From assembly GCA_018831055.1 (NCBI GenBank), contig JAHJRE010000137.1:1-43321 (forward strand): 43,321 nucleotides of DNA, in the 5' to 3' direction. Made by a program: the position numbers and the translations under genes. Source of the DNA: Bacteroidota bacterium (GTDB taxonomy: Bacteria; Bacteroidota; Bacteroidia; Bacteroidales; B18-G4). This document shows positions 1-43,321 of the stretch, one piece after another (the stretch's first letter is position 1; the number at the start of each line of letters is the position of its first letter). The notes under the pieces were generated by a model. It saw only the letters and a list, made by a program, of their open reading frames with translations. It searched no databases and was not told where the DNA came from.

Positions 1-18
1 CCCGTATGATCAGAAAGA

Positions 19-62
19 GCGTGGGGCGGCGGGCTTCGCCCGCCGCCCCACGCCTCTGTTTT
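19..62 (+). terminator. Strong GC hairpin, probable rho-independent terminator
   Basis: Perfect 16-bp arms at 19-34 and 38-53 enclose a TTC loop and are followed by a T-rich stretch (ctctgtttt, 54-62). It would end a plus-strand gene lying left of the window. The arms are nearly all G and C, so on the minus strand it would also fold, but no T tract follows there. Confidence 0.7.
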
Positions 63-80
63 ATTAGGCACCACGCCGTC

Positions 81-285
81 ATCCCGGCGTAAGCCGGGAT
101 CTGGCATCCGTCACCCCGGTGAAAACCGGGGCATCCCGGTGTAAGCCGGGACATCCCGGTGAACCCGGGGCATCCCGGCGAAAGCCGGGATCTGGCATCC
201 CCGTCATCCCGGTGTAAGCCGGGACATCCCGGTGAAACCCGGGGCATCCCGGCGAAAACCGGGACATCCCGGCGTAAGCCGGGAT
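81..285. repeat. Array of about nine 20-bp palindromic GC-rich units
   Basis: Units of the form atcccgg(c/t)g(t/a)aa(g/a)ccggg(a/g) follow each other at about 20-bp spacing (units begin near 81, 113, 133, 153, 172, 206, 226, 246 and 266). Each is itself a short inverted repeat, CCCGG...CCGGG. A spacer beginning ctggcat recurs at 101, 192 and 286, giving a higher-order period of about 91-94 bp. Open frames across it on both strands are low-complexity products of the repeat and not genes. A diverged single unit with the same architecture lies at 4322-4337. Confidence 0.85.
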
Positions 286-300
286 CTGGCATCCCCGCAC

Positions 301-533
301 ATGCCGGGACGGGACAGCCTAACATAATCCCCCAGCCCCCCTGTGACTTTTTCCCAATTCCCCGTCTAATGTTTGTTAAAAAACGTTTATAAAATATTTT
401 TTGTGCTTTGTACCGGGATTCAATTTTTAGCATATTATTGCACGCTTTTTCAAATACCGGGGCGTAAAATACAAGGTGTTGAAAAGCAGGAAATTATATT
501 AGGTTCTTTACATTAACTTTTTAATCATTTTAA
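301..533. other. AT-rich intergenic region upstream of the kamA operon
   Basis: No gene is recognisable. The stretch turns sharply AT-rich after the GC-rich repeat array and should hold the promoter of the operon starting at 534. I see several T-rich blocks but no clear TTTG-N19-TAnnTTTG match, so I do not place a promoter here. Confidence 0.4.
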
Positions 534-1775
534 ATGATCACTAAAAATCTGCATGTTTCAAAATCTATCCTTGAACTGGATGATTTTGAAGAACCTCCGC
601 CTCTGAACGGAAAGAACCGCTCAACCCTCATGGCCGAACCGGCCCACGTTTCGTTTCATACTTCCCAGAAAACCATCGTCTTCCGCGAAAGATTCTTTCC
701 AGGAATCACGGATAATGAATGGAATGACTGGAAATGGCAGATACGGAACAGCTTCACTTCTTTTGAGGCATTGAGCAGGGTCCTGAGTCTATCGGCGGAT
801 GAGATCGGCTTCAAAGAGCAATCGTTGAATCTGCCGGTGCGTATCACTCCTTACTATGCCAGCTTGCTGGATGAGTTCGATTCGCTACAGCCTCTGCGGC
901 GAACCATGGTACCTGTGATGGATGAGCTGATGGTCTCCCCCGGGGAGGCTTCCGATCCGCTCGGAGAGGAACACGACAGCCCCGTTCCGCTGATCATACA
1001 CCGTTATCCCGACAGGGCGCTGTTCCTGGTTACGGACTTCTGCTCGGCCTATTGCCGCTACTGCACAAGATCGCATTTGGTATCGAAAAAGCAACACGCG
1101 GGGTCCAGACTGATCGATGGTGCCATCCAATACATTGCCAATCACCCGGAAATCCGCGATGTGATCATCTCCGGCGGCGATCCGCTCACTCAGTCGGACG
1201 AGCGCCTGGAGTATATCCTCTCAAGCCTGCGGGCCATCCCACACCTGGAGATCATCAGGATTGGCACCAAGGTACCGGCCGTACTCCCCATGCGGATTAC
1301 GAAAAAGCTCACTAACATGCTGAAGAAATTCCATCCGCTGTTCATGAGCATTCATTTTACGCATCCCGACGAGATGACTCCCGAAACCGGCCATGCCTGC
1401 AATATGCTCGCCGATGCCGGGATACCCATGGGCAGCCAGACCGTCCTGCTTAAAGGCATCAACGATATGGAAGGTGTATACCGCAAGCTGACCCACGAGC
1501 TGCTGAAGGTGAGGGTGAAACCTTATTACCTCTATCAGTGCGACCCTATCCCGGGTTCCTCACATTTCAGGACAAGCGTGGAAGCCGGACTGGATGTGAT
1601 ACGCAACCTACGGGGCTTTACCTCGGGTTATGCTGTACCGCATTATGTGATCGATGCTCCGGGTGGGGGAGGAAAGATTCCGCTGCTGCCCGAATACGTT
1701 ACCGGCAGGGAGAACGGAGATATCCTGCTGGTCAACTATCAGAAAAAGGTGTTCCGGTATCCGGATTATATGTAG
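534..1775 (+). CDS. kamA: KamA-family radical SAM aminomutase (lysine 2,3-aminomutase-like)
   Basis: 413 aa, the usual size of lysine 2,3-aminomutase. The radical SAM cluster motif CxxxCxxC is at C170, C174 and C177 (CSAYCRYC), after the family stretch HRYPDRALFLVTD. The PLP-binding motif PGGGGK ends at K381. In the clostridial enzyme, two aspartates (D293, D330) bind the epsilon-amino group of lysine. Both have counterparts here: the D of YQCDP and D374 in DAPGGGGK. Glutamate 2,3-aminomutases replace them, so a lysine-like substrate is more likely. The expected reaction is migration of the alpha-amino group to C3. EpmB, the EF-P-modifying relative, lacks this C-terminal architecture and has no EpmA partner here. 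It is the first gene of a four-gene operon with two ATP-grasp ligases and a GNAT, so the beta-amino acid is probably ligated and acetylated. Family is sure; the exact substrate is inferred. Confidence 0.9.
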   Translation: MITKNLHVSKSILELDDFEEPPPLNGKNRSTLMAEPAHVSFHTSQKTIVFRERFFPGITDNEWNDWKWQIRNSFTSFEALSRVLSLSADEIGFKEQSLNLPVRITPYYASLLDEFDSLQPLRRTMVPVMDELMVSPGEASDPLGEEHDSPVPLIIHRYPDRALFLVTDFCSAYCRYCTRSHLVSKKQHAGSRLIDGAIQYIANHPEIRDVIISGGDPLTQSDERLEYILSSLRAIPHLEIIRIGTKVPAVLPMRITKKLTNMLKKFHPLFMSIHFTHPDEMTPETGHACNMLADAGIPMGSQTVLLKGINDMEGVYRKLTHELLKVRVKPYYLYQCDPIPGSSHFRTSVEAGLDVIRNLRGFTSGYAVPHYVIDAPGGGGKIPLLPEYVTGRENGDILLVNYQKKVFRYPDYM

Positions 1776-1802
1776 GCTTTAACCGTTTAATTTTTACAGA
1801 CC

Positions 1803-2795
1803 ATGATCATCGGACTCACATATGATCTCCGTTCGGCTTATCTTGCCATGGGCTATTCCGAGGAGGAAACCGCCGAATTCGACCGTGAAAGCACCATCGA
1901 TTCCCTCGATGCCACCTTGCAGGATCTGGGATACCAGACCCGCCGCATCGGGCATCTCAGGCAATTGATAGAACGGCTGCAACAGGGAGAAAGCTGGGAC
2001 CTGGTTTTCAACATCTGCGAAGGCATGCACGGCATAGCCCGCGAAGCCCAGGTCCCGGCCCTGCTGGATGCATACCGCATCCCCTATGTCTTCTCATCCC
2101 CCCTCGTGATGGCCCTTACACTCGATAAGTCGATGGCCAAAAGGGTTGTTCGTGACGCCGGTATCAACACACCGGATTTTATCGTTGTCAACAAAACATC
2201 GGATATCAACCATGTCCGTCTTCCCTTCCCTCTCTTTGCCAAACCCCTTGCGGAAGGCACAGGGAAAGGGATCAACGGGAAATCGGTGATCCGCGACAGG
2301 AAAGAACTGAACGATACCTGTACCTACCTGCTGAAGGAATTCAGACAACCCGTGATCGTGGAAGCCTTCCTGAGCGGACGGGAATTCACCACCGGCATCG
2401 TGGGTACCGGCGATCGGGCCCGCTGCGTGGGAACCATGGAGATCATCCTGAACCATAAAGCAGAACAGGATGTATATTCCTATACCAATAAGGAAGAATG
2501 TGAATCGTTGGTAAAATATGTTGCCACCAAAGGAAAGGAAAAGGAGGAATGTGAACAACTGGCCCTGGATGCATACAGGGTTCTGGGCTGTGAGGATGCC
2601 GCCAGGGTGGATATACGCTACGATGCTGATGGCCGGGCTTCTTTTATGGAGATCAACCCCTTGCCCGGACTCCATCCTGAACACTCCGACCTGCCCATCC
2701 TGGCTGGACTGAATGGGATACCTTTCCCCGAACTGATGAAGATGATCATGGATTCGGCGGTCTCTAAGATCACATCAGCCATTCATAAAACCTAG
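1803..2795 (+). CDS. ATP-grasp ligase, D-Ala-D-Ala ligase-like (1)
   Basis: 330 aa. The N-terminal third carries a Ddl-like segment (DLVFNICEGMHG, then PALLDAYRIPYVFSSP) followed by the ATP-grasp region (LDKSMAKRVVRDAGI, then FAKPLAEGTGKGI). The C-terminus has the metal-binding signature ARVDIR...FMEINPLPGL, with the E and N expected to hold Mg-ATP. Ddl enzymes normally read EVNT.PG in this place, and the active-site tail differs, so I read it as a carboxylate-amine ligase of unknown substrate and not a cell-wall Ddl. It lies 27 bp after kamA and 8 bp before a second ATP-grasp gene of the same family. Likely role (inference): joining an amino acid to the beta-amino acid made by the KamA protein. 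Confidence 0.85.
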   Translation: MIIGLTYDLRSAYLAMGYSEEETAEFDRESTIDSLDATLQDLGYQTRRIGHLRQLIERLQQGESWDLVFNICEGMHGIAREAQVPALLDAYRIPYVFSSPLVMALTLDKSMAKRVVRDAGINTPDFIVVNKTSDINHVRLPFPLFAKPLAEGTGKGINGKSVIRDRKELNDTCTYLLKEFRQPVIVEAFLSGREFTTGIVGTGDRARCVGTMEIILNHKAEQDVYSYTNKEECESLVKYVATKGKEKEECEQLALDAYRVLGCEDAARVDIRYDADGRASFMEINPLPGLHPEHSDLPILAGLNGIPFPELMKMIMDSAVSKITSAIHKT

Positions 2796-2803
2796 CCGGT
2801 AAT

Positions 2804-3757
2804 ATGAAAAAGGCAATCATCCTGATCAACGCCCTGGGCCCGGATGCGGGACCTGATGAAATCGATGTTCTCAAACAGGCAGAAGCCATTGAACATGCAC
2901 TGCTGGAACTGGGATATGCAACGGAACGGCTCTTTCTCGACCTTGACCTGAAACATGCCGCCCTAAAGCTCCAGGAAGCATCACCCCACTTTGTCTTTAA
3001 CCTCGTGGAAAGCCTCGATGGCTCCGGCAACCTTATCCACCTTGGTCCCACCCTGCTGGAACATCTGAAGATCCCTTTTACAGGATGCGGCTCCGAAGCC
3101 ATGTACATCACCAGCAATAAGATCCTGGCCAAAACCCTGATGCAACAGAAAGGCATACCTACCCCCCACTGGTTCGAAGATCCTTCGGATGCCATGCCGG
3201 ATAAGCATTATATCGCCAAACCGATGTGGGAGGATGCATCCCTGGGTATAGGCGACGGCAATATCCTGCCGGGTGATCCCGTTGTGATCCGCAACTTCCT
3301 GGAAAATAACAGGAATTACCGTTATTTCTTTGAAGAATACATCGAAGGACGGGAGTTCAATATTTCTCTGCTTGCCGGAACGGTCCTGCCCGTGGCCGAG
3401 ATCGAGTTCCGCGGCTACCCCGCCGGCAAACCCCGTATCGTGGGATATGAGGCAAAATGGCAGGAAGGTTCATTCGAATATGAGAATACGGTTCGCTCTT
3501 TCGGGCTTGATAGCAAGGATACAAAGCTTACCGGGCATTTAAAGGATATTTGTCTTCACTGTTGGTCCCTTTTCGGTTTATCGGGCTATGCAAGGGTTGA
3601 CTTCCGGGTGGATCAGAAGGGCAGGCCCTGGGTGCTGGAAGTCAATGCAAATCCATGCCTGTCGCCGGATGCCGGATTTGTGGCCGCTGCCGACAGAGCG
3701 GGCATTGGTTTTACCAGGGTTGTTGAACGAATTATAAAGGATATATGGAAAGTATAA
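2804..3757 (+). CDS. ATP-grasp ligase, D-Ala-D-Ala ligase-like (2)
   Basis: 317 aa, homologous to the preceding gene but clearly diverged. It shows FNLVESLDGSGNL, PTLLEHLKIPFTGCGSEA, the nucleotide-binding segment NKILAKTLMQQKGIPTPHWF, and the metal-binding end ARVDFR...LEVNANPCLSPDAGF. LEVNANP is a canonical ATP-grasp ending. Two successive ligases in one operon fit two successive amide-forming steps, or a heteromeric enzyme. Its last codons overlap the start of the GNAT gene by 13 nt, so the two are probably translationally coupled. The substrate cannot be told from the sequence. Confidence 0.85.
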   Translation: MKKAIILINALGPDAGPDEIDVLKQAEAIEHALLELGYATERLFLDLDLKHAALKLQEASPHFVFNLVESLDGSGNLIHLGPTLLEHLKIPFTGCGSEAMYITSNKILAKTLMQQKGIPTPHWFEDPSDAMPDKHYIAKPMWEDASLGIGDGNILPGDPVVIRNFLENNRNYRYFFEEYIEGREFNISLLAGTVLPVAEIEFRGYPAGKPRIVGYEAKWQEGSFEYENTVRSFGLDSKDTKLTGHLKDICLHCWSLFGLSGYARVDFRVDQKGRPWVLEVNANPCLSPDAGFVAAADRAGIGFTRVVERIIKDIWKV

Positions 3758-4230
3758 GTTTCAGGAAGGAAGTCAGGAAAAGCGATGTGGAGACCGTACG
3801 GGAAATGGTGACAGGAACGGGTTTCTTCAACCGGGAGGAGATTGATATCGCCGCCGAACTGGTTATGGAAAGGCTTGAAAAAGGCGAGGCCAGCGGTTAT
3901 GAGTTCATCTTCCTGGAGCTCGACGAGACCACCGTAGCTTATTCCTGTTTCGGCAGGATACCCCTCACTAAAAGCAGTTACGACCTCTACTGGATCGTGA
4001 CCAATACCCAATGGCGCAACCGCGGACTGGGCAAGATACTCCTGAAAGAAACCGAAGAGGCCATCCTGAAAGAAAATGGAAGTGCCGTTTACGCAGAAAC
4101 CTCCTCCCGGGAACAGTACCTCCCAACCCGGAAATTTTACGAAAACAACGGCTATCTGCTTAAAGCCCGCTTCGAGGATTATTACGACAGGGGTGATGAC
4201 CTGGTGTTTTATGTAAAGGGGTTGGCTTAG
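3745..4230 (+). CDS. GNAT-family N-acetyltransferase
   Basis: 161 aa, a single GNAT domain. Acetyl-CoA motif A is visible as WRNRGLGKILLKETE (R-x-x-G-x-G pattern), after the beta-4 strand DLYWIVTN. The end SSREQYLPTRKFYENNGYL matches the usual ARxFYExxGF C-terminal part. It overlaps the second ATP-grasp gene by 13 nt. In archaea and some bacteria lysine 2,3-aminomutase (AblA) is paired with an acetyltransferase (AblB) to make N-epsilon-acetyl-beta-lysine, an osmolyte. AblB is larger, so this is at most an analogous step. It may acetylate the product of the two ligases (inference). Confidence 0.85.
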   Translation: MESISFRKEVRKSDVETVREMVTGTGFFNREEIDIAAELVMERLEKGEASGYEFIFLELDETTVAYSCFGRIPLTKSSYDLYWIVTNTQWRNRGLGKILLKETEEAILKENGSAVYAETSSREQYLPTRKFYENNGYLLKARFEDYYDRGDDLVFYVKGLA

Positions 4231-22812: not shown

Positions 22813-24885
22813 ATGTCTCTCAAGAACTTAAGAAATATTGGCATTGCCGCTCATATCGATGCGGGCAAAACCACACTAACCGAAAGGATACTATTCTACA
22901 CCGGAATTAACAGAAAAATCGGGGAAGTCCATGATGGACAAGCTACCATGGATTTTATGAAACAGGAGCAGGAAAGAGGTATCACTATTGCATCCGCTGC
23001 TATATCCTGTGCCTGGAAAGACTCTCAGATAAATATAATAGATACTCCCGGCCACGTAGACTTTACAATAGAGGTGGAGCGTTCACTGCGTGTAATCGAT
23101 GGAATGATAGCAGTTTTTTGCGCTGTTGGGGGCGTTGAACCTCAGAGTGAGACCGTATGGAATCAGGCCGACCGTTATAAAGTACCACGCATTGCTTTTA
23201 TCAATAAGATGGACCGTACCGGTTCGGATTTTAACGATGTTGTCGGTCAAATGAATCAGTACCTGGATGCCAATGCCGTACCTTTTCAGTTACCCATTGG
23301 TGCAGAAGAAGAATTCAAAGGCATAATCGACATCATCGAAAAGAAAGCCTACATTTTCCAGGATAAGGATAGGATAGAAGTTGACATACCGGCTGAATAC
23401 AAATCGCAATGCCAGAAAGCCAGGGATTTCCTGGTGGAGAAGCTTGCCGAAGTGAATGATGAGATCATGGAACTTTTCCTGGAAGAAAAGGAGATCCCGG
23501 TGGAAATGCTTAAAACGGCAGCACGTGACGCCACCCTGAAGCTTATGATCACTCCGGTATTTTGTGGGGCAGCATATAAAAACAAAGGGGTTCAACTTCT
23601 TCTGGATGCTGTGATCGACTACCTCCCTTCTCCTTTCGACATCGGAGCCGTGGTTGGTATTGATGTGGACAATCCTGAGAAATCCCATACACGCAATCCT
23701 TCCCCCAAAGATCCTTTCGCTGCACTGGCGTTTAAGCTGATCAATGATCCTTATGTTGGTCAGCAGACTTTTATCCGCATTTATTCAGGAACACTTACAG
23801 GAGGATTGCAATTACTGAATTCCACCAAGGGAAAGATGGAAAGAACGGGCAGGATCCTGAAAATACATGCCAAAGACCGTGAAGAGGTGGATTATGCCGG
23901 ACCGGGGGATATTGTTGCTCTCATTGGCATGAAACTCACGAAAACCGGTGACACATTGTGTGACCCTGATCATCCTCTTCATCTTGAATCAATTAAGGTG
24001 CCGGTTTCGGTTATTGAAATGAAGATCAACCCTGCCAACAGGAAAGATCAGAGCAAGCTCGGGGAAGCCCTCAGCAAACTGGCCAATGAAGATCCTTCAT
24101 TCAATGTCAGGTTCGATCATGAAACTGAAGAAACCATCGTTTCAGGAATGGGAGAGCTCCACCTGGAGATCATTATCGACCGCCTGAAGGAAGAGTTTAA
24201 GGTAGAGGTGGAAGTTGGCGAGCCTTCCGTTGCTTATCGTGAAACGATCACAGCCGAAAAGGAAAATGATTACAGGCACTCGAAACAAACTGGTGGAAAG
24301 GGGCAATTTGCTCAGACTATGATCCGGATAGAACCCAATGAAGATATTGGCTATGAATTTGTTGACAAGATCAAGGGAGGTGTTATCCCCGCTGAATTTA
24401 TCCCTTCTGTAAACAAAGGTATCACCAAAACCCTCCATGACGGGGTACTCGCGGGATATCCCATTGTGGATGTCAAAGTCACCCTTCTCGACGGCAAATT
24501 CCATCCGGTTGACTCCAGCGACATGGCTTTCCAAACCTGTGCGTCAATATGCTTTAAACAAGCTTTCATGAAAGCCGGTCCTATCCTGCTTGAACCGGTA
24601 ATGAAAGTGGAAATCAATACTCCCGACGAATACATTGGAGAGATCGTGGGCAACCTGAACCGAAAACGCGGTAAAATAGAATCCATGAGAAGGTTCCGTA
24701 AAGGATCGCAAAAACTGGTCGGCTTTGTCCCGCTCAGTGAAATGTTTGGTTATGCTACGCAATTAAGGAATATATCAAGCGGAAGAGCCAATTATTCTAT
24801 GGATTTTTATAAGTACTTGCCGGTCAGTTCTTCCCTCCAGGAAGAAATAATCAGGAAAATCCGCGAACAGGAAAAGGAAAAGTAA
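22813..24885 (+). CDS. fusA: Translation elongation factor G (stand-alone paralogue)
   Basis: 690 aa, normal EF-G length. All GTPase motifs are intact: G1 AHIDAGKT (13-20), RGIT switch I, G3 DTPGH (77-81, with the catalytic His) and G4 NKMD (131-134). Domain II ([21 protein letters not shown]), domain III ([20 protein letters not shown]), domain IV ([20 protein letters not shown]) and domain V follow in order. It is alone, not in a str operon with rpsL, rpsG and tuf. The wording [20 protein letters not shown] and [15 protein letters not shown] resembles the spirochaete/mitochondrial EF-G branch more than the usual Bacteroidota FusA. It may be a second EF-G used under special conditions. Bacteroides thetaiotaomicron has such a starvation-induced EF-G2; equivalence is not shown. 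Confidence 0.93.
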
Positions 24886-35608: not shown

Positions 35609-35639
35609 TTTGGAAATTAAAAAACTTTACTTACTTTTG
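35609..35639 (+). promoter_or_regulatory. Exact-consensus Bacteroidetes promoter of the defence operon
   Basis: TTTG at 35609-35612, 19 bp spacer, TACTTTTG at 35632-35639: this fits the primary sigma (SigAbfr) consensus TTTG-N19-TAnnTTTG exactly. The start codon follows 24 bp later with an AAAGGA ribosome binding site at about 35652-35657. It is the best promoter in the window and probably drives all genes to the right edge. Confidence 0.8.
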
Positions 35640-35663
35640 TAGCGTCATTACAAAGGAATAAAT

Positions 35664-36221
35664 TTGAAAAAGCTAATTAAAGATATTACAAACATCCAAA
35701 CTGGACTCTTCGCTAAGCCTGCTGGCATTGGTGAATTGGTGTATCTACAGTCCAAGCATTTTGACGAATATGGGCAATTACTTTCTACACTTCAGCCCGA
35801 CTTGATGGCTGAGGGTATTTCTGAAAAGCATCTACTAAAAGATGGTGACGTGCTGTTTGCTGCAAAGGGAACAAAAAACTTTGCAGCCCTTTTTGAAAAC
35901 TTCAACAAACCATCTGTAGCTTCAACTTCTTTTTTCGTATTAAGACCAACCGACAAAAAGATACTTCCTGATTATCTGGCTTGGTTCCTTAACAATCACT
36001 CCACACAGACACTATTAAAAAGTCAAGCTATTGGCACTTCCATTCCTTCTATTTCAAAACAAGTTTTGGAAAATCTGGAAATAGCAGTGCCGGATATCGA
36101 AACACAAAAAGCGATTCTTCAAATCACTAAGCTTCGTAACAAGGAGAAAGCATTGAAGCAGGAAATTGAAACACTTCGTGAAAAACAAATTCAACAACAA
36201 ATAATCAACGCAATAAAATAA
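35664..36221 (+). CDS. hsdS: Half-size type I restriction specificity subunit (HsdS, single TRD)
   Basis: 185 aa, about half of a normal HsdS. It starts with TTG after AAAGGA. Residues 1-140 form one target-recognition domain with the usual landmarks (GDVLFAAKGTKNFAALF, PDYLAWFLNNHSTQTLL, GTSIPSISKQVLENLEIAVP). The tail IETQKAILQITKLRNKEKAL continues into one coiled-coil spacer helix. Half-size HsdS proteins are known to dimerise and give a symmetric recognition site. It precedes hsdM by 5 bp. A full-length HsdS is encoded four genes later, so the operon has two specificity proteins. It could instead be a regulatory or antagonist subunit; it does not look broken. Confidence 0.85.
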   Translation: MKKLIKDITNIQTGLFAKPAGIGELVYLQSKHFDEYGQLLSTLQPDLMAEGISEKHLLKDGDVLFAAKGTKNFAALFENFNKPSVASTSFFVLRPTDKKILPDYLAWFLNNHSTQTLLKSQAIGTSIPSISKQVLENLEIAVPDIETQKAILQITKLRNKEKALKQEIETLREKQIQQQIINAIK

Positions 36222-36226
36222 GTATC

Positions 36227-37789
36227 ATGGCTAAAATAACACAGAAAGACATCAACGATGCAGTTTGGAAAGCTTGCGACACCTTTAGAGGGAGTATTGA
36301 TCCAAGCGTTTACAAAGACTATGTGCTTACCATGCTGTTCCTGAAATACCTCAGCGATGTGCATGATGATAAAATGGAAGGCTACTTGAAAAAGTATAAT
36401 GGTGATGCAGAACGTGCAAAACGTGCCATGCAACATGAACGCTTTATTGTACCGGAGCACAGCCATTTTAAATTTCTTTTCGATTCACGCAATGAAGCCA
36501 ACATTGGTGAACTCATCAACATTGCTTTGACTGATTTAGAAGAAGCCAACCGTGAAAAGCTATACAGTGAAGACGGTGCAGGGATATTCCAAAATATTGA
36601 CTTTAACAGCAGCAAGCTGGGCGAACCCAAGGATAAAAATCAACGACTGAAAACCTTGCTTATTGATTTTAAATCGGATAAACTGGATTTGCGTCCATCG
36701 CATTTAGATGGCAACGACATTATTGGTGGTGCTTACATGTTCCTGATTGAAAACTTTGCCAGTGATGCCGGAAAAAAAGCAGGTGAATTTTTTACGCCAA
36801 AAGAAGTTTCTACGCTTATTGCTAAACTTACCAAAAGCAAACCCGGTTCACGTATATGTGACCCAACCTGTGGTTCTGCTTCTCTTTTAATTAAAGCAGG
36901 TGAAGAAGTAGGCTCAGATAATTTCTCACTTTTCGGACAAGAAGCAAACGGAAGCACCTGGGCATTGGCAGTGATGAACATGTTTTTGCATGGCTTTGAC
37001 AATGCTACCATCCGTTGGGGCGATACCATTCGCAACCCGAAACTGAAAGAAGGCGATACCTTGATGAAGTTTGATACCGTAGTAGCAAACCCTCCTTTCT
37101 CCTTAGATAAATGGGGAAAGGTAGAAGACAAGGATGGCGAAAAAACCACTGTTAGCTACGACCCTGAAAGCGATAAATACAACCGTTTTTGGAGGGGTGT
37201 ACCACCTAAGAGCAAAGGTGACTGGGCATTTATCAGTCACATGATTGAAACGCTGAATGAACACGGCAAAGCAGGAGTAGTTGTGCCGCATGGTGTATTG
37301 TTCCGTGGCAGCAGCGAAGGTCGTATACGTCAACGCACCATTGAAGAAAACCTGCTCGAAGCGGTGATTGGTTTACCTGCTAACCTGTTTTTTGGCACAG
37401 GTATTCCGGCAGCTATTCTCATTTTTAACAAGCAAAAAAGCAGCAACAACTTCTTGTTTATTGATGCAAGCAAGCAATATGAAAGTGCCAAAAACCAAAA
37501 CAAGCTGCGAGCAAGCGATATTGAACACATTGTAAAAACCTACCGTGATTTTACAACGGGCAAATTACAACCTGGTGTGGTGGAAGATAAATTCAGTTAT
37601 GTAGCCACACCCGGAGAAATACAAGAAAACGACTTTAACCTAAATATCCCTCGCTATGTGGACACGTTTGAAGAAGAGGCCGAAGTGGATATTGCTGCCG
37701 TACAAAAGGAAATTGAAAAATTAGAAGATGAACTAAAAACGGTGCAGGCTGAAATGGACAAATACCTTAAACAAATAAATGCTTTTTAA
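36227..37789 (+). CDS. hsdM: Type I restriction-modification DNA methyltransferase HsdM
   Basis: 520 aa, full length. The N-terminal helical HsdM domain (about 8-150; VWKACDTFRGSIDPSVYKDY, MLFLKYLSDVHDD) is followed by the N6-adenine methylase fold. The SAM-binding motif I is DPTCGSAS from residue 212, after GEFFTPKEVSTLIAKL. The catalytic motif IV is NPPF at 288-291. The C-terminal coiled coil (VQKEIEKLEDELKTVQAEMD) should contact HsdS. It methylates adenine at the site chosen by the S subunit, and would act with HsdR for cleavage; hsdR is not in the window. The next gene, a CD-NTase, begins 2 bp after its stop. Confidence 0.95.
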   Translation: MAKITQKDINDAVWKACDTFRGSIDPSVYKDYVLTMLFLKYLSDVHDDKMEGYLKKYNGDAERAKRAMQHERFIVPEHSHFKFLFDSRNEANIGELINIALTDLEEANREKLYSEDGAGIFQNIDFNSSKLGEPKDKNQRLKTLLIDFKSDKLDLRPSHLDGNDIIGGAYMFLIENFASDAGKKAGEFFTPKEVSTLIAKLTKSKPGSRICDPTCGSASLLIKAGEEVGSDNFSLFGQEANGSTWALAVMNMFLHGFDNATIRWGDTIRNPKLKEGDTLMKFDTVVANPPFSLDKWGKVEDKDGEKTTVSYDPESDKYNRFWRGVPPKSKGDWAFISHMIETLNEHGKAGVVVPHGVLFRGSSEGRIRQRTIEENLLEAVIGLPANLFFGTGIPAAILIFNKQKSSNNFLFIDASKQYESAKNQNKLRASDIEHIVKTYRDFTTGKLQPGVVEDKFSYVATPGEIQENDFNLNIPRYVDTFEEEAEVDIAAVQKEIEKLEDELKTVQAEMDKYLKQINAF

Positions 37790-37791
37790 TT

Positions 37792-39021
37792 ATGCTTACA
37801 AAAGAACAAAAACAACAATTCAGCGATATTCTGGAAGAGTTAGGCAAGACGCTTGAAATCACAAAAGAACAGTATGATGCAGCAGTTAAAAGCTATAAAT
37901 ATGTTGGTGAATGGCTTTCAAAAGACGATTCTCCACTTGCAACCTATAGTCCAGAGATACTACCACAAGGCTCATTCTTGTTGCAAACAATGATAAGACC
38001 AATACATGAGGAAGACGAACTTGATATCGACCTTGTATGTAAGCTCGAAAAGATACAAGCCAGTTGGACACAGTACGAGTTAAAAAAACTTGTTGGTGAT
38101 AGACTAAAAGCAAATGGTATTCTTAACAAACTCTTGGTGATACCTGACGGTAGAAGGTGTTGGACTTTGCAATATGCTGAATCAGCTAAGTTTCATTTAG
38201 ATGTATTGCCATCAGTTGTAGCAACTGGTTATAGAACAATATTAGAAAAAGCGTTTTCGGCAACTGATTTGACAGATACAAATACATTGGGTATTCGAAT
38301 AACAGATAGAAATACCCCAAATTATAGAACATCGACAAATCTTCGTGAGTGGTTAAAAAGTAACCCATTCGGTTATGCTATTTGGTTTCAAGATCGCTGT
38401 AAAATAGTGACAAGAGAAGTGAGGATGATGAGTGAAGCAATTCAACCTGTTCCTAAATACCAAACTGATAAATTGCCGTTGCAACGTGTAGTTCAAATCC
38501 TGAAGCGTCACCGTGATATGATGTTCAATGGTGATGAGCATAAGCCAATTTCAATCATCATAACAACTTTGGCTTCCAGAGCCTACGCAAAAGAAACTGA
38601 TATAATTGATGCTTTAATAAATGTGGTTACCAAAATGAGAAGTCATATTTCAGACACGAATCCTTTTACAGGAGCAAACGAAAAATGGGTAAGCAACCCT
38701 GTTCATCCCGAGGAAAATTTTGCTGATAAATGGAAGGAATTTCCGGTTAGACAAACCAATTTTTACAAATGGCTTGATGCTGTAGAATTGGACGTGAAGA
38801 ATATTGTTGCACAACAAGGTAAGGGTTTACAGTTCATCAATGAATCAATGGTGAAGCCATTTGGTAAAGATGCTGTTACCAAAGCATTCAGTAGTTATGG
38901 TGAAAAATATTTGAAGCAACGTGAAAGTGGTGCAATGAAAATGGCAGCAGGAACGGGAATGCTGGGTGAAACCGGGAGAACTTCTGTTCCCCAACACAAA
39001 CCTTTTGGTAAAAATGAGTAG
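37792..39021 (+). CDS. CBASS CD-NTase 1 (cGAS/DncV-like nucleotidyltransferase)
   Basis: 409 aa. The polymerase-beta-type nucleotidyltransferase core is visible: QGS at 59-61, the metal-binding pair D78-x-D80 (DELDIDLVCKLEK) and a third acidic residue D137 (KFHLDVLPSVV). It is the typical CD-NTase layout with a C-terminal helical bundle (QVVQILKRHRDMMF-type segment RVVQILKRHRDMMFNGDEHK). It should make a cyclic di- or trinucleotide on phage infection. The last 30 residues are Gly-rich and probably flexible (TGMLGETGRTSVPQHKPF), as in CD-NTases whose C-terminus is conjugated by an E2 partner. The E2-like gene overlaps it by 8 bp. It starts 2 bp after hsdM. The product cannot be predicted safely from sequence. 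Confidence 0.88.
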   Translation: MLTKEQKQQFSDILEELGKTLEITKEQYDAAVKSYKYVGEWLSKDDSPLATYSPEILPQGSFLLQTMIRPIHEEDELDIDLVCKLEKIQASWTQYELKKLVGDRLKANGILNKLLVIPDGRRCWTLQYAESAKFHLDVLPSVVATGYRTILEKAFSATDLTDTNTLGIRITDRNTPNYRTSTNLREWLKSNPFGYAIWFQDRCKIVTREVRMMSEAIQPVPKYQTDKLPLQRVVQILKRHRDMMFNGDEHKPISIIITTLASRAYAKETDIIDALINVVTKMRSHISDTNPFTGANEKWVSNPVHPEENFADKWKEFPVRQTNFYKWLDAVELDVKNIVAQQGKGLQFINESMVKPFGKDAVTKAFSSYGEKYLKQRESGAMKMAAGTGMLGETGRTSVPQHKPFGKNE

Positions 39022-39487
39022 AAAGTCGCTTGTAATACAGGAAGGTACTCTTAAGTCCTATTTCCCCGGAAGCCAAATAAAGCGAAAGGGGGAATCGGAA
39101 CTCACATGGATTGGAGTTGTTACGCCATCTCCGCTGAGTGCTACCTATAAATTAAAGCTACACTACAAATATAATGAGGGAGCTAAGGTATATGTAATTG
39201 ACCCAAAACCATTGAAATTGGCAGTAGGGCAAGTTGTTTTACCACACGTTTACAGTACGCCAGACCAACGGCTATGTCTCTATTATCCTAAAGACAAAGA
39301 ATGGAACACAGGTATGCTCTACGTGCATACATTAATCCCATGGGCATGTGAATGGCTTTGCCATTATGAATTATGGGTGGCTACAGGGACTTGGCATGGT
39401 GGAGGAATATATCACCCAACCGAGGCTGAAAAACAAGCCAACAAACAAAAAGAAACAATTGATGAAGCAAGCAGCAGTAATAAATAA
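39014..39487 (+). CDS. CBASS E2-like protein (stand-alone, type II-short)
   Basis: 157 aa from the ATG at 39014, which overlaps the CD-NTase stop by 8 bp; the frame is open further left (38966) but inside the CD-NTase gene. The layout matches an E2 ubiquitin-conjugating fold: strands YKLKLHYKYNEGAKVYVIDP, then LPHVYSTPDQRLCLYYPKDK with H78 and a candidate catalytic C88, then W97, then a C-terminal helix region LIPWACEWLCHYELWVATG and the family ending WHGGGIYHP. This corresponds to the HPN...C...W pattern of E2s. Known type II-short CBASS systems carry an E2 without an E1 or JAB protease, and it primes the partner CD-NTase. No ThiF-like E1 and no JAB gene is present within the window. It links CD-NTase 1 to a conjugation step. 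Confidence 0.78.
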   Translation: MSRKSLVIQEGTLKSYFPGSQIKRKGESELTWIGVVTPSPLSATYKLKLHYKYNEGAKVYVIDPKPLKLAVGQVVLPHVYSTPDQRLCLYYPKDKEWNTGMLYVHTLIPWACEWLCHYELWVATGTWHGGGIYHPTEAEKQANKQKETIDEASSSNK

Positions 39488-40667
39488 TTTAATGGAGGAA
39501 AGGAAGCCTTTTTACAATTCTACGATACCAACAGATTGGAGTGTAAGTACAGTTGGCGAAGCATTTGAAATTTGTAACTATTTACGTTTTCCAATAAGCG
39601 AAGAAGAACGGAAGAAAATCCAAGGCCTTTTCCCCTATTATGGTCCAACAAAAATTCAAGACTATATTAACGAATATAGAATAGAAGGGAAATATGCTTT
39701 AATCGGAGAGGATGGCGACCATTTTTTAAAATGGAAGGAATTGCCAATGACACTTTTGGTAGAAGGCAAATTCAATGTTAACAATCATGCACATGTAATA
39801 AAAGGCACGGACAACCTTACTGAGTGGTTTTTCTATTATTTTAACCACAAAGAACTAACTCCATATTTGACAAGGCAAGGAGCTGGAAGATACAAACTAA
39901 CCAAGCAATCACTAGAAAAAATCCCGATTGCATTGCCAAATATTGCGGAACAAAAAGCTATAACAACGATTATAAGAACCTGTGATGCTAATGTTGAAGT
40001 AGTTGAGAAACTTATTATCCAAAAAGAACTCCGCAAAAAATGGCTCATGCAGCAATTACTTTCGGGGAAAAGAAGACTGAATAGCTTTAATGGTGAAGTA
40101 AAAACAAAAGTTGTAGGACAGTTTATAAAAGAAGTTTCTGAAAGAAATAAGGACTTGAAAGTTACCAGAGTTCTCTCTGTTACAAATTCCAGAGGATTTA
40201 TAAACCAATCTGATCAATTTGATAGGTCGGTTGCTAGCGAAGATGCTTCAAACTATAAAATCGTAAAGAAAGGTCAGTTTGCATATAATCCTTCGAGGGT
40301 TAATGTTGGCTCACTTGATTTACTGAGAAATTTTGATGAAGGCATTTTGAGTCCAATGTATGTTGTGTTTTCAACAGACGAAAAACATCTACTTGCTGAC
40401 TTTCTATACTTTCATCTAAAAACACAATGGTTCTATGGTCATATTCCAATGTTCGTTCAGGGAAGCGTTAGAGATAGTTTATCATTTGATGGACTTTGCT
40501 CAATGAAGTTTTTTATTCCAACGATAGAAGAGCAAACTGCCATTGTTAGAGTTCTTCAAGCAGCAGATAAAGAAATATCGCTTTTGAAATTGAAAGCAGA
40601 AAAATTGCGAGAAAAGAAAAAAGGCTTGATGCAGCAATTATTAACCGGAAAAATCAGAATCAAATAA
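39462..40667 (+). CDS. hsdS: Full-length type I restriction specificity subunit (HsdS, two TRDs)
   Basis: 401 aa from the ATG at 39462, which overlaps the E2 gene by 26 bp; an ATG at 39492, 4 bp after the E2 stop, is equally possible. Two TRDs are present. The first runs from IPTDWSVSTVGEAFEI to LEKIPIALPNIAEQKAI and leads into the central helix RKKWLMQQLLSGKRRL. The second runs from KVTRVLSVTNSRGF to SMKFFIPTIEEQTAIVRVLQ and leads into EKKKGLMQQLLTGKIRIK. Two different TRDs give an asymmetric bipartite target. It is separated from hsdM by the CD-NTase and E2 genes, which is unusual. It shares little with the half-size HsdS beyond the general layout. The patatin gene starts 1 bp after its stop. 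Confidence 0.92.
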   Translation: MKQAAVINNLMEERKPFYNSTIPTDWSVSTVGEAFEICNYLRFPISEEERKKIQGLFPYYGPTKIQDYINEYRIEGKYALIGEDGDHFLKWKELPMTLLVEGKFNVNNHAHVIKGTDNLTEWFFYYFNHKELTPYLTRQGAGRYKLTKQSLEKIPIALPNIAEQKAITTIIRTCDANVEVVEKLIIQKELRKKWLMQQLLSGKRRLNSFNGEVKTKVVGQFIKEVSERNKDLKVTRVLSVTNSRGFINQSDQFDRSVASEDASNYKIVKKGQFAYNPSRVNVGSLDLLRNFDEGILSPMYVVFSTDEKHLLADFLYFHLKTQWFYGHIPMFVQGSVRDSLSFDGLCSMKFFIPTIEEQTAIVRVLQAADKEISLLKLKAEKLREKKKGLMQQLLTGKIRIK

Positions 40668-40668
40668 T

Positions 40669-41781
40669 ATGGCAGATACATTCAAAATATTATCCATTGA
40701 CGGAGGCGGCATCAGAGGCGTTTTCCCAGCCATGCTATTAGCCAACTATGAAGCAGAACTTAAAGCGAAAGGCGTTGAGAAATGGCAGGTGTATCAAAAC
40801 TTTGATTTAATCTGTGGTACTTCTACCGGGGGTATTATGGCAATTGCTCTTTCTTTAGGAATACCTGCTAAAGAGATTTATGAGATGTATTTGAATAATG
40901 CTGGTTTGATTTTCGGTGATAAAAAAAGTTTTATCAGACAGATATGGAGGTCGGCTCATAAACGTGATGAATTAGAGAAATTAGTTCGGGAAACATTTGC
41001 AAAACACAACAATGCTAAGGATCCTAGATTGGTTGATTGCAAGACACCTGTAATGATTCCTATTTATGATATGATGGAAGGTCGTCCATCAGTTTTAAAA
41101 AGCAAGTACCATCCAGCTTTTGTTCGTGATTTTCATATTCCGGCATATCAGGCGGCCATGGCAACATCTGCCGCACCAACCTACTTCGACCCTTATTCAT
41201 CAAGCTACACCGACTTAAACGACATTGAAAAACCCTTTGCCAATAAAATAGATGGCGGAGTTTGGGCAAATAACCCCACCCTAAACGGAATCATTGAAGC
41301 ACAAAAAGCCTTCGGGGTTAAACTTGAAGAACTTTCTGTTTTATCAATTGGAACAGGTCATCAGAAATTCTGTGATGCCGGCATTAAATATAATAAAGGA
41401 ATTATCAACTGGATTCTCCGACAGCTGAGAATCAAAAAGAAATCAGAAATGCGGAAAAAGTTTGGTATAAAATATTGGATTTACTCGGATGATAAAAAAA
41501 GACTGATTGATGTGTTTATGCAAGGGCAATCTCAACAAGTTCAAAACTTAATCAGCCTTTTGCACAAAGGAATTGATAAAGGTGAACAAGAAAATTTCAA
41601 GTATTTGCGAATTGACACAGAATTAAATGAAAGCTGCAACATTGAAATGGACGAAACGGATACCGAAAGACTTAAAAAACTTGCTGAAAAAGCAACCATA
41701 GAATTTCAAAACAATGCTACCAATATTATTAAGAATTTTGGGAGTGGCAGTCGGAGGACTGATTCTCAAAGAACTGTTTAG
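40669..41781 (+). CDS. capV: CapV-like patatin phospholipase, CBASS effector
   Basis: 370 aa. The patatin fold is complete: the oxyanion loop DGGGIRG (11-17), nucleophile S52 in GTSTGG (50-55), and the catalytic Asp D195 in DGGVWANNP (195-203). CapV is activated by cyclic dinucleotides and degrades membrane phospholipids, killing the infected cell. In known CBASS operons it is next to a DncV-like cyclase, as it is here (CD-NTase 2, 25 bp downstream). It starts 1 bp after the hsdS stop (TAATATG), so translation is likely coupled. The last residues (KNFGSGSRRTDSQRTV) are unlike a folded end, while another frame of the same DNA gives a hydrophobic stretch running into the next gene; a frameshift near 41735 cannot be excluded. 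Confidence 0.9.
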   Translation: MADTFKILSIDGGGIRGVFPAMLLANYEAELKAKGVEKWQVYQNFDLICGTSTGGIMAIALSLGIPAKEIYEMYLNNAGLIFGDKKSFIRQIWRSAHKRDELEKLVRETFAKHNNAKDPRLVDCKTPVMIPIYDMMEGRPSVLKSKYHPAFVRDFHIPAYQAAMATSAAPTYFDPYSSSYTDLNDIEKPFANKIDGGVWANNPTLNGIIEAQKAFGVKLEELSVLSIGTGHQKFCDAGIKYNKGIINWILRQLRIKKKSEMRKKFGIKYWIYSDDKKRLIDVFMQGQSQQVQNLISLLHKGIDKGEQENFKYLRIDTELNESCNIEMDETDTERLKKLAEKATIEFQNNATNIIKNFGSGSRRTDSQRTV

Positions 41782-41806
41782 CGATGACGAAATAAAATAC
41801 AACGAC

Positions 41807-42673
41807 ATGGCCAATACACATAACCAATTTTTAAAGTTCGAGCAAGCAATCTCACTTACAAAAGGGAAAAAGGATAAACTTACTTCATCCCGACAAGCTT
41901 TGCAAAAAAGCATTGTAGAATATTTCAAAACCAAAACGAAAGTTCCGGTACCTAAATTTTACATACAAGGTTCATACAAAATGAAAACAATGGTCGTGAA
42001 AAAGGACGGTAGTTACGATGTTGATTTAGGTGTTTATTTTCTTACCAAACCAACTATTGAGCCATTGACTTTACAAAAGTATGTAGCAGAAGCGGTGAAA
42101 GACCAAACCGTTTCTGGTATTGAGCATAAAGAAAAGTGTATCAGGGTAATTTACAAAGGCGATTTTGATATTGACTTGCCAGTCTATTACAAAATCCCAA
42201 ATAATAAACATCCATTTCTTGCCACAAAAACCAAATGGCAAGAAAGCGACCCAAAAGAATTATGCGATTGGTTTGAAAAGCAACGTAAGGAGAAAGATAG
42301 AGATGGTCAAATGCTTCGCTTGGTAAAATACTTCAAAACTTGGGCTTACCAAAGAAGCAGAAAAATGCCGAGTGGTATTGCTTTCAGTTTTTGGGTAGCC
42401 ACATTTTACAAACCGAACACTAGAGACGATATTGCTTTTTATGAAACTGCCAAAGCCGTAAAGAATTCATTTGGGTGGGAAACTGCAAGTAAGAACCCTG
42501 CAACTCCAAGAGATGATTTTCTGGCAAAACTGGACGGCAATCAGAAAAGCAACTTCAAAGAGGCATTTAATGAACTGATAAAACAAGCGGAACAAGCTTT
42601 ACAGCAAGACAGTCTAACCAAAGCACTAAACATTTGGAAACAGCAGTTTGGGGATAAGTTTCCGGTAATTTAA
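41807..42673 (+). CDS. CBASS CD-NTase 2 (DncV-like cyclase)
   Basis: 288 aa from the ATG at 41807. The frame is open back to an ATG at 41714 inside the patatin gene, adding 31 mostly hydrophobic residues. I prefer the inner ATG because MANTHNQFLKFEQAISL is the usual beginning of this group. Numbered from there, GS is at 55-56, the metal pair is D71-x-D73 (YDVDLGVYF) and the third Asp is D123 in FDIDLPVYY. The later stretch KWQESDPKELCDWFEKQ and MLRLVKYFKTWAYQ...MPSGIAFSFWVA matches Vibrio DncV (KWINSDPKIVEDWF, RFMKAW). The likely product is a cyclic dinucleotide that activates the patatin. It lacks a flexible C-terminal tail (ends FGDKFPVI), unlike CD-NTase 1, so it is less likely to be an E2 substrate. 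Confidence 0.88.
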   Translation: MANTHNQFLKFEQAISLTKGKKDKLTSSRQALQKSIVEYFKTKTKVPVPKFYIQGSYKMKTMVVKKDGSYDVDLGVYFLTKPTIEPLTLQKYVAEAVKDQTVSGIEHKEKCIRVIYKGDFDIDLPVYYKIPNNKHPFLATKTKWQESDPKELCDWFEKQRKEKDRDGQMLRLVKYFKTWAYQRSRKMPSGIAFSFWVATFYKPNTRDDIAFYETAKAVKNSFGWETASKNPATPRDDFLAKLDGNQKSNFKEAFNELIKQAEQALQQDSLTKALNIWKQQFGDKFPVI

Positions 42674-42684
42674 AAAAGAAAGAT

Positions 42685-43321
42685 ATGGCATATAAAATAC
42701 CACAACTTCCTTTGGATTTCGGTTTAGAAACCAAAGCCATTCTAAAAAAAACGGCTGCTGCCCGCAGTGCATTGGCTGAGATGAAAGGGGCTGCCCTGAG
42801 CATTCCGAATGAAAGTATTTTAATCAGTACCCTTTCTCTACAAGAAGCAAAAGACAGTTCGGCCATAGAAAACATCATTACCACACATGATGAATTGTAT
42901 CAGGGCGATTACCTGAAAAAGGAGTTTAAATCCATCGCATCCAAAGAAGTACACAACTATGCAGAGGCATTGCGTTGGGGTTTTGCAACTGTTAGGCAAA
43001 AGGGAATACTGACAAACAACCACATCATTCAGATGCAGGCAACACTGGAAGAAAATGATGCAGGCTTTAGAAAAGTACCCGGCACAGAATTGAAGAATGA
43101 GCAAACGGGTGAAATAGTGTACACGCCACCACAAACCCATGATGAAGTAGTAGCTTTAATGAGCAATCTGGAACAGTTCATCAACGACAACGCACTCAGT
43201 GATTGGGATCCGCTGGTGAAAATGGCTATTATCCATCATCAGTTTGAAAGCATTCACCCTTTTTATGATGGCAATGGAAGAACAGGTAGGATTATCAATA
43301 TTCTGTATCTGGTAAAAGAAG
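42685..43321 (+). CDS. fic: Fic-family protein with N-terminal inhibitory motif (cut by window edge)
   Basis: 212 codons are visible and the frame runs off the right edge. The Fic motif HPFYDGNGRTGR is complete at residues 191-202. The inhibitory helix motif (S/T)xxxE(G/N) is present as S58-S-A-I-E62-N63, which marks class II Fic proteins whose AMP transfer is blocked by their own N-terminal helix. Family members transfer AMP from ATP to hydroxyl groups of target proteins. It starts 11 bp after CD-NTase 2 with a purine-rich AAAGAAAGA site, so it is part of the same operon. Fic genes of this type are often found inside type I restriction-modification operons, usually before hsdR. The target is unknown. 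Confidence 0.93.
   Translation, partial: MAYKIPQLPLDFGLETKAILKKTAAARSALAEMKGAALSIPNESILISTLSLQEAKDSSAIENIITTHDELYQGDYLKKEFKSIASKEVHNYAEALRWGFATVRQKGILTNNHIIQMQATLEENDAGFRKVPGTELKNEQTGEIVYTPPQTHDEVVALMSNLEQFINDNALSDWDPLVKMAIIHHQFESIHPFYDGNGRTGRIINILYLVKE

What the first reader, a model, noticed from the sequence alone, without database searches (positions are those of the whole stretch)
35609..43321. CBASS genes stitched into a type I restriction-modification operon
The order hsdS(half), hsdM, CD-NTase, E2, hsdS, patatin, CD-NTase, fic has gaps of +5, +2, -8, -26 (or +4), +1, +25 and +11 bp behind one exact-consensus promoter. Defence genes often lie side by side, but here CBASS genes separate hsdM from its full-length hsdS within one transcription unit. 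That would give co-expression and fixed stoichiometry, and suggests a functional link: abortive CBASS as a backup when restriction is overcome or when the methylase/specificity complex is disturbed. It may be a composite system not yet described. Co-transcription is inferred from spacing; functional linkage is speculation.
Basis: partly seen in the sequence, partly recalled or inferred. Interest (0 to 1): 0.85.

Follow-up and report, generated by a model that had tools for sequence, protein, structure and literature searches.

The report
Restriction operon carrying a CBASS cargo
A bacterial DNA-restriction operon carries genes of a second, unrelated anti-phage alarm system (CBASS) between its own genes, an arrangement that recurs in other bacteria, where this kind of restriction operon acts as a carrier for exchangeable defence genes.

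Summary
In detail: gene content, order, spacing and promoter are as described. The fic gene cut by the contig end continues on contig C98 of the same genome and is followed by hsdR (join inferred), so this is a type I restriction-modification (RM) operon with CBASS inside it. The order is not unique: 28 of 80 fetched loci with a relative of the first CD-NTase are embedded likewise. The host operon is a distinct build: half-hsdS, hsdM, [slot 1], hsdS, [slot 2], hsdR, usually ygjP. Its slots carry exchangeable defence genes (CBASS, Pycsar, Gabija, Qat, Shedu, Fic, RhuM, others). In two hsdM-based samples, 7 of 42 genomes have a CD-NTase inside this operon against 0 of 40 other type I operons (Fisher 0.012; 0.026 without the window); most of that comes from the first sample. 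Genes, and even parts of the cyclase gene, are exchanged independently. Shared operon membership is thus well supported; a dedicated functional coupling of CBASS and restriction is not shown, and diverse cargo argues against it. Ten searches of an open-licence library found no paper on CBASS inside a type I RM operon; other defence genes embedded there are known (PrrC, DarTG2, TgvAB). New variant of a known kind.

The parts
35609..35639 (+). Bacteroidota-type promoter TTTG-N19-TACTTTTG
   Evidence: same place in relatives
35664..36221 (+). half-HsdS: one target-recognition domain plus one long helix
   Evidence: Pfam Methylase_S; AlphaFold model pLDDT 92.6; Foldseek to Esub1 and HsdS chains; first gene in 30 of 32 close relatives, the other 2 cut by contig starts, and in 19 of 19 loci of a second sample
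36227..37789 (+). HsdM, type I adenine methyltransferase
   Evidence: Pfam N6_Mtase and HsdM_N; NPPF motif
37792..39021 (+). CD-NTase1 (slot 1 cargo)
   Evidence: PADLOC Cyclase 1.1e-133, Pfam DncV-like_NTFase 3.3e-9; GS and DxD motifs
39014..39487 (+). E2-like conjugating enzyme, no E1 or JAB found beside it (slot 1 cargo)
   Evidence: PADLOC E2 3e-49; candidate catalytic Cys in RLCLYYP (sequence)
39492..40667 (+). HsdS, two target-recognition domains (alternative start 39462)
   Evidence: Pfam Methylase_S, two stretches
40669..41781 (+). patatin-like phospholipase, CBASS effector (slot 2 cargo)
   Evidence: PADLOC Effector 1.2e-96, Pfam Patatin; GTSTGG and DGG motifs
41807..42673 (+). CD-NTase2 (slot 2 cargo)
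   Evidence: PADLOC Cyclase 3.1e-103, Pfam DncV-like_NTFase 1.1e-18 and SMODS 1.2e-11; GS and DxD motifs
42685..43321 (+). Fic protein, N-terminal part (slot 2 cargo); appears to continue on contig C98 1-457, followed there by HsdR 662-3886
   Evidence: Pfam Fic_N, Fic; HPFYDGNGR; contig C98

Best explanation
The locus is a type I RM operon of a distinct build (half-hsdS, hsdM, slot 1, hsdS, slot 2, hsdR, usually a ygjP-like metallopeptidase gene) that acts as a carrier for interchangeable defence cargo. Here slot 1 holds a CD-NTase with an E2 (the pair of 'type II short' CBASS) and slot 2 holds a patatin effector with its own CD-NTase, plus fic. All are expected to be transcribed from the promoter before half-hsdS. 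Restriction would be the first line; if a phage passes it, one or both cyclases make a cyclic nucleotide that turns on the patatin, which attacks membrane lipids and stops the infection together with the cell. Cargo is exchanged by recombination, guided by the conserved hsd genes and by cargo genes already present. Shown: gene content, order, spacing, recurrence, mosaic identity, cargo diversity. Inferred: co-transcription, layered defence, the recombination route. Assumed from the families: the enzyme activities.
For: Same kind of embedding in 28 of 80 fetched CD-NTase1 relatives; CD-NTase1 starts 1-3 bp after the hsdM stop in 17 of 29 embedded loci, window included. Half-hsdS stands first in 30 of 32 close relatives found by hsdM (2 contigs start at hsdM), 0 of 4 distant ones and 19 of 19 loci of a second sample. 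Cargo by profile: CBASS, Pycsar (L130, L201), Gabija (L143), QatA and QatC (L138), Shedu (L134), RhuM (L132), Fic, and candidate families. CD-NTases inside the operon in 7 of 42 genomes against 0 of 40 other type I operons; Fisher 0.012, without the window 6 of 41 and 0.026. Mosaic: against L005, hsdM DNA is 87-94% identical, the CD-NTase1 body 66-79%, its 3' end and E2 88-95%; against L002 the body is 92-97% and the 3' end, E2 and hsdS mostly 69-84%. HsdM identity exceeds RpoB identity in 11 of 12 genomes compared and equals it in the same-family one; in seven of other families it is 83-92% against 70-77%, which points to transfer of the operon.
Against: In the second sample 1 of 17 genomes had CD-NTases inside the operon and 4 had one elsewhere; one of the 17 (G894) has only cut operons. 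Eight of 33 half-hsdS genomes of the first sample were left out of the count, and genomes of one genus (g207) make up 6 of its 25, so they are not independent. Four of the 40 control loci lacked a recognised hsdM or hsdS. No expression or phage data. The join of C137 and C98 rests on 8 bases and an open frame. A number of cargo proteins scanned had no PADLOC match and many were not scanned.
Confidence: 0.75

Rival explanations
1. Dedicated guard: the RM complex (or its half-HsdS) keeps the CD-NTase silent, and inhibition or damage of the RM enzyme by a phage releases it, as EcoprrI does with the PrrC anticodon nuclease.
For: Recurrent embedding with 1-3 bp spacing behind hsdM; enrichment against other type I operons; PrrC precedent (PMC12707154, passages).
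Against: The same slots carry unrelated systems; CD-NTase1 bodies and hsdM are exchanged independently; 52 of 80 relatives are not embedded as fetched; no binding evidence.
Confidence: 0.15
2. Hitch-hiking: clustering of defence genes placed CBASS in a tolerant operon site; it is transcribed with RM but the two do not interact in function.
For: Diverse cargo; frequent CD-NTase1 relatives outside the operon; weak second sample.
Against: 0 of 40 other type I operons carry a CD-NTase by the models used; cyclase before and effector after hsdS in 19 of 26 loci, though descent within one clade accounts for much of that.
Confidence: 0.45
3. Two separate CBASS units: CD-NTase1-E2 has lost or lacks its own effector (a SAVED-HNH nuclease in many relatives), and only patatin-CD-NTase2 works here.
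For: Of 29 embedded loci, 16 have SAVED-HNH and no CD-NTase2 gene seen, 9 patatin with CD-NTase2, 1 (L010) both effectors with CD-NTase2, 1 (L053) patatin alone, 2 neither. L131 has patatin, CD-NTase2 and an E2 without CD-NTase1.
Against: Loci with CD-NTase1, E2 and patatin but no CD-NTase2 hit exist outside RM (L040, L042, L044, L049, L051, L069, L078) and inside (L053), so CD-NTase1 relatives can stand alone with a patatin. Of the 16, L006, L025 and L065 are cut by contig ends before hsdR and L071 has a different second cyclase.
Confidence: 0.35

Closest known systems
PrrC in the EcoprrI type IC RM locus
   Same: Abortive defence gene embedded in a type I RM locus (PMC12707154, passages)
   Different: Single anticodon nuclease, activated when the RM enzyme is inhibited; here a multi-gene CBASS and no such control shown
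RptR-RMS-DarTG2 island of enteropathogenic E. coli
   Same: Defence module between hsdS and hsdR; the authors call the site a potential recombination hotspot for defence systems (PMC12255303, passages)
   Different: DarTG2 in that one site, with a repressor gene first; here two slots, half-hsdS first, and CBASS split around hsdS
TgvAB in the Vibrio cholerae VPI-2 type I RM operon
   Same: Second defence system inside a type I operon (PMC11411939, passages)
   Different: Modification-dependent restriction, not a signalling system
Type II short CBASS (CD-NTase with E2 only)
   Same: CD-NTase1 with an adjacent E2 and no E1 or JAB beside it
   Different: The cyclase ends in ...KPFGKNE instead of a terminal Gly or Ala; the effector lies beyond hsdS and is followed by a second CD-NTase

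Membership tests
Type I restriction-modification | hsdM, hsdS and hsdR in one locus | tested here: met
   hsdR lies on C98, joined by inference
Type I restriction-modification | Methylates and restricts DNA | not testable with these tools
   NPPF in HsdM; in HsdR a GSGKS motif, but my simple DEAH-box pattern gave no match
CBASS | CD-NTase plus effector in one operon | tested here: met
   co-transcription inferred
CBASS | Cyclic nucleotide made on infection activates the effector | not testable with these tools
   No assay
Type II short CBASS | E2 next to the CD-NTase, without E1 and JAB in the locus | tested here: met
   no such gene among the eight scanned in the operon; rest of the genome not searched
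Type II CBASS | Last residue of the cyclase is typically Ala or Gly and is conjugated (PMC11153139, passage) | tested here: not met
   Tail ...HKPFGKNE; of 70 unfused relatives with a whole 3' end, window included, 5 end in Gly or Ala; 67 have F(x)G near the end, followed by 0-8 residues
PrrC-like guard in a type I operon | Embedded effector is held inactive by the RM complex | not testable with these tools
   No interaction data

The most novel reading that the evidence does not exclude
The half-hsdS/hsdM operon is a general guard-and-cargo platform: the RM complex, perhaps through the half-HsdS, senses phage anti-restriction or DNA damage and licenses whichever signalling system (CBASS, Pycsar or other) sits in its slots.
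Probability: 0.15. Interest if true: 0.9.

Novelty: new variant of a known kind. Interest (0 to 1): 0.6.

Why it matters
It gives a recognisable operon type (half-hsdS first, two slots) in which new defence genes can be sought by position, shows that CBASS and Pycsar genes sit inside restriction operons, and shows a CBASS cyclase gene exchanged in two parts: its body, and its 3' end together with E2. The many natural combinations make it testable whether restriction and abortive signalling work together.

Tried and rejected
Tried without result: close relatives among viral contigs with HsdM and with CD-NTase1 (none confirmed); CD-NTase1 in phages (one record, 44%) and plasmids (125 records, all under 60% identity). 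Rejected: hsdS shuffling through repeats shared with half-hsdS (the three direct families and one inverted pair found do not involve it). Dropped: EF-G as a marker, because the window's EF-G is a second copy and the C201 copy may be a paralogue too; RpoB used instead. Not claimed: that E2 acts on the CD-NTase1 tail. Tail and E2 identity go together given the body in 22 embedded loci (partial rho 0.58, 0 of 500 permutations) but hardly in all 64 (0.18, 1 of 500) and not in 42 standalone ones (0.05, 99 of 500), and the two lie side by side in the DNA. Left out of the enrichment count: the 4 genomes with distant HsdM and 8 of 33 half-hsdS genomes. Of these 8, seven operons are cut by contig ends (one of them, G580, also has a broken hsdM) and one, G506, shows no hsdS or hsdR behind hsdM; only G314 of the 8 was searched for CD-NTases (none). 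The 52 loci counted as not embedded include short contigs (such as L019, L054, L061) where the operon may be cut off, and L014, L066 and L073, which have a distant type I system within the fetched stretch. L002's half-hsdS value is a false match to hsdS and was not used.

Full report
Observation. The window is the whole contig C137 of a 4.19 Mb, 342-contig genome. Motifs expected of active enzymes (recalled) are present in HsdM, both CD-NTases, patatin and Fic; the E2 has a candidate catalytic cysteine. A promoter of the Bacteroidota type precedes half-hsdS; its -7 box is found at 24-46 bases before half-hsdS in 21 of 25 loci and the full motif in 11 of 25.

The operon is longer than the window. 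HSDR_N in the same genome hits C98 and C191. C98 begins with the missing Fic C-terminal part, in frame, its first 8 bases equal to the last 8 of the window, followed by a 1075-residue HsdR. The full order is therefore half-hsdS, hsdM, CD-NTase1, E2, hsdS, patatin, CD-NTase2, fic, hsdR (join inferred).

Recurrence. A scan of genome contigs with CD-NTase1 confirmed 140 relatives, of which the best 80 loci were kept. In 28 of 80 the gene lies behind the hsdM of this operon type, usually with half-hsdS before and hsdS and hsdR after it; some contigs are cut (L002 and L007 before half-hsdS; L006, L007, L025, L046 and L065 before hsdR). Record titles place them in Bacteroidota, Balneolota, Chlorobiota, Ignavibacteriota and Planctomycetota; many are metagenome bins, so single placements may be wrong (L046, called Chlorobiota, has HsdM 95% identical to that of a Flavobacterium, L052). 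With the window, CD-NTase1 starts 1-3 bp after the hsdM stop in 17 of 29; where the order could be read (26 loci, window included) the cyclase precedes and the effector follows hsdS in 19, both precede it in 6, both follow it in 1. On a tree of 81 CD-NTase1 relatives the embedded state needs at least 10 changes, at least 5 of them forced by well-supported branches, against a shuffled mean of 24; the clade of the window has 17 of 20 rows embedded. So embedding is kept within one clade and arose or was lost repeatedly elsewhere. The loci were found by likeness to the window, so 28 of 80 is not a prevalence.

Survey by hsdM. In 395 genomes of the phylum, 37 (the window's included) have a HsdM at E <= 1e-100. 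Of the 36 others, 32 carry the closer HsdM, and 30 of these show half-hsdS first (2 contigs start at hsdM); the 4 at 42-45% identity do not. ORF calling hid hsdM itself in L144, and in L210 of the second sample. The slots hold CBASS, Pycsar, Gabija, QatA and QatC, Shedu, RhuM, Fic and candidate families; not every cargo protein was scanned and several scanned ones had no match. Twenty-five genomes (window included) with the operon readable from hsdM to hsdR hold 8 CD-NTases by SMODS: 7 inside the operon (6 genomes) and 1 outside (G376). Forty other type I loci (one per genome, picked down the capped list; 36 show hsdM, hsdS and hsdR) hold none by profile panel, and the 8 CD-NTases that the two Pfam models find in 7 of those genomes all lie elsewhere. 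CD-NTases as such are thus about as common in both groups (7 of 25 and 7 of 39 genomes; G387 was in both sets and is counted with the first). A second sample, 395 genomes of the class, gave 17 new genomes (19 loci). One, G644, has 2 CD-NTases inside, again on both sides of hsdS with patatin and CD-NTase2 behind it (L202); 4 genomes have one outside, one of them below the family cut-off. Together 7 of 42 against 0 of 40, Fisher 0.012; without the window 6 of 41, 0.026; first sample alone 6 of 25, 0.002. The second sample is clearly weaker than the first, and the genomes are not phylogenetically independent. The profile panel was partly built from cargo of this operon type; the Pfam searches were not.

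Mosaic. Against the window L005 has HsdM 96, HsdR 97, E2 94, CD-NTase1 body 65 and tail 100% identity; L002 has body 97, tail 56, E2 72, patatin 92, CD-NTase2 92; L021 has HsdM 94, CD-NTase1 59, CD-NTase2 91, Fic N-part 98 (C-part 75), HsdR 96. DNA profiles in 150-base steps show the change at about 38790-38930 in both L005 and L002. HsdM and RpoB identities to the window's genome: G716 91/77, G887 83/76, G242 90/75, G668 89/72, G793 91/71, G803 92/70, G347 85/70, G644 78/76, G387 78/66, G313 71/60, G431 63/60, and the same-family G004 84/84. This favours transfer of the operon between families.

Half-HsdS. The model (pLDDT 92.6) is one recognition domain with one long helix; the nearest solved folds are Esub1 (8vsr, 8vsq; known to me here by entry title only, no paper with that name among the eight listed) and then HsdS chains. 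Its identity to the window is lower than that of HsdM in 15 of 15 loci that have both, as expected of a specificity part. Two half subunits could pair with HsdM for a second target; this is inference.

Which cyclase drives which effector. Patatin comes with CD-NTase2 in 9 embedded loci and without in 1; SAVED-HNH comes without CD-NTase2 in 16, three of them cut before hsdR; L010 has both effectors. The simplest reading is that slot 2 brings either a SAVED-HNH effector for CD-NTase1 or a patatin with its own cyclase, so CD-NTase1-E2 of the window may share the patatin or idle. Loci with CD-NTase1, E2 and patatin alone speak for sharing.

Literature. Passages were read in PMC12707154, PMC12255303, PMC11411939, PMC11153139 and PMC12409362; other papers were seen only as listings. 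None seen described CBASS inside a type I RM operon; the library holds open-licence papers only. Embedding as such is known.

Verdict. Real, recurrent, and better described as a two-slot RM carrier with CBASS as one of its cargos. A dedicated coupling remains open.

Noticed in passing
L130 7726-9129; L201 6311-7621 (locus read reversed): Pycsar cyclase genes in slot 2 of the same RM operon type (L130 by PADLOC PycC; L201 by likeness to it).
   Followed up: partly
L003, L009, L010, L011, L021, L053, L060: A GGDEF-type protein (Pfam match made on the copy in L009) sits behind patatin or CD-NTase2, or behind hsdS in L060; role unknown.
   Followed up: no
L009, L122, L046, L203: A three-gene block (calcineurin-like phosphoesterase, c10, c11) occurs behind hsdS in two loci and directly behind hsdM in two others, so cargo seems to move between slots.
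   Followed up: no
window 38900-39021 and relatives: CD-NTase1 tails keep an F(x)G motif followed by 0-8 residues (67 of 70 unfused tails), with no JAB-type protease seen in the operon of the window to trim them.
   Followed up: partly
window 22813-24885: EF-G copy only 50-56% identical to the nearest in 12 other genomes and 52% to a second copy on C201 of the same genome.
   Followed up: partly
window 2-433: Open frame on the - strand with repeated short peptides at the contig start looks like translated intergenic repeats.
   Followed up: no
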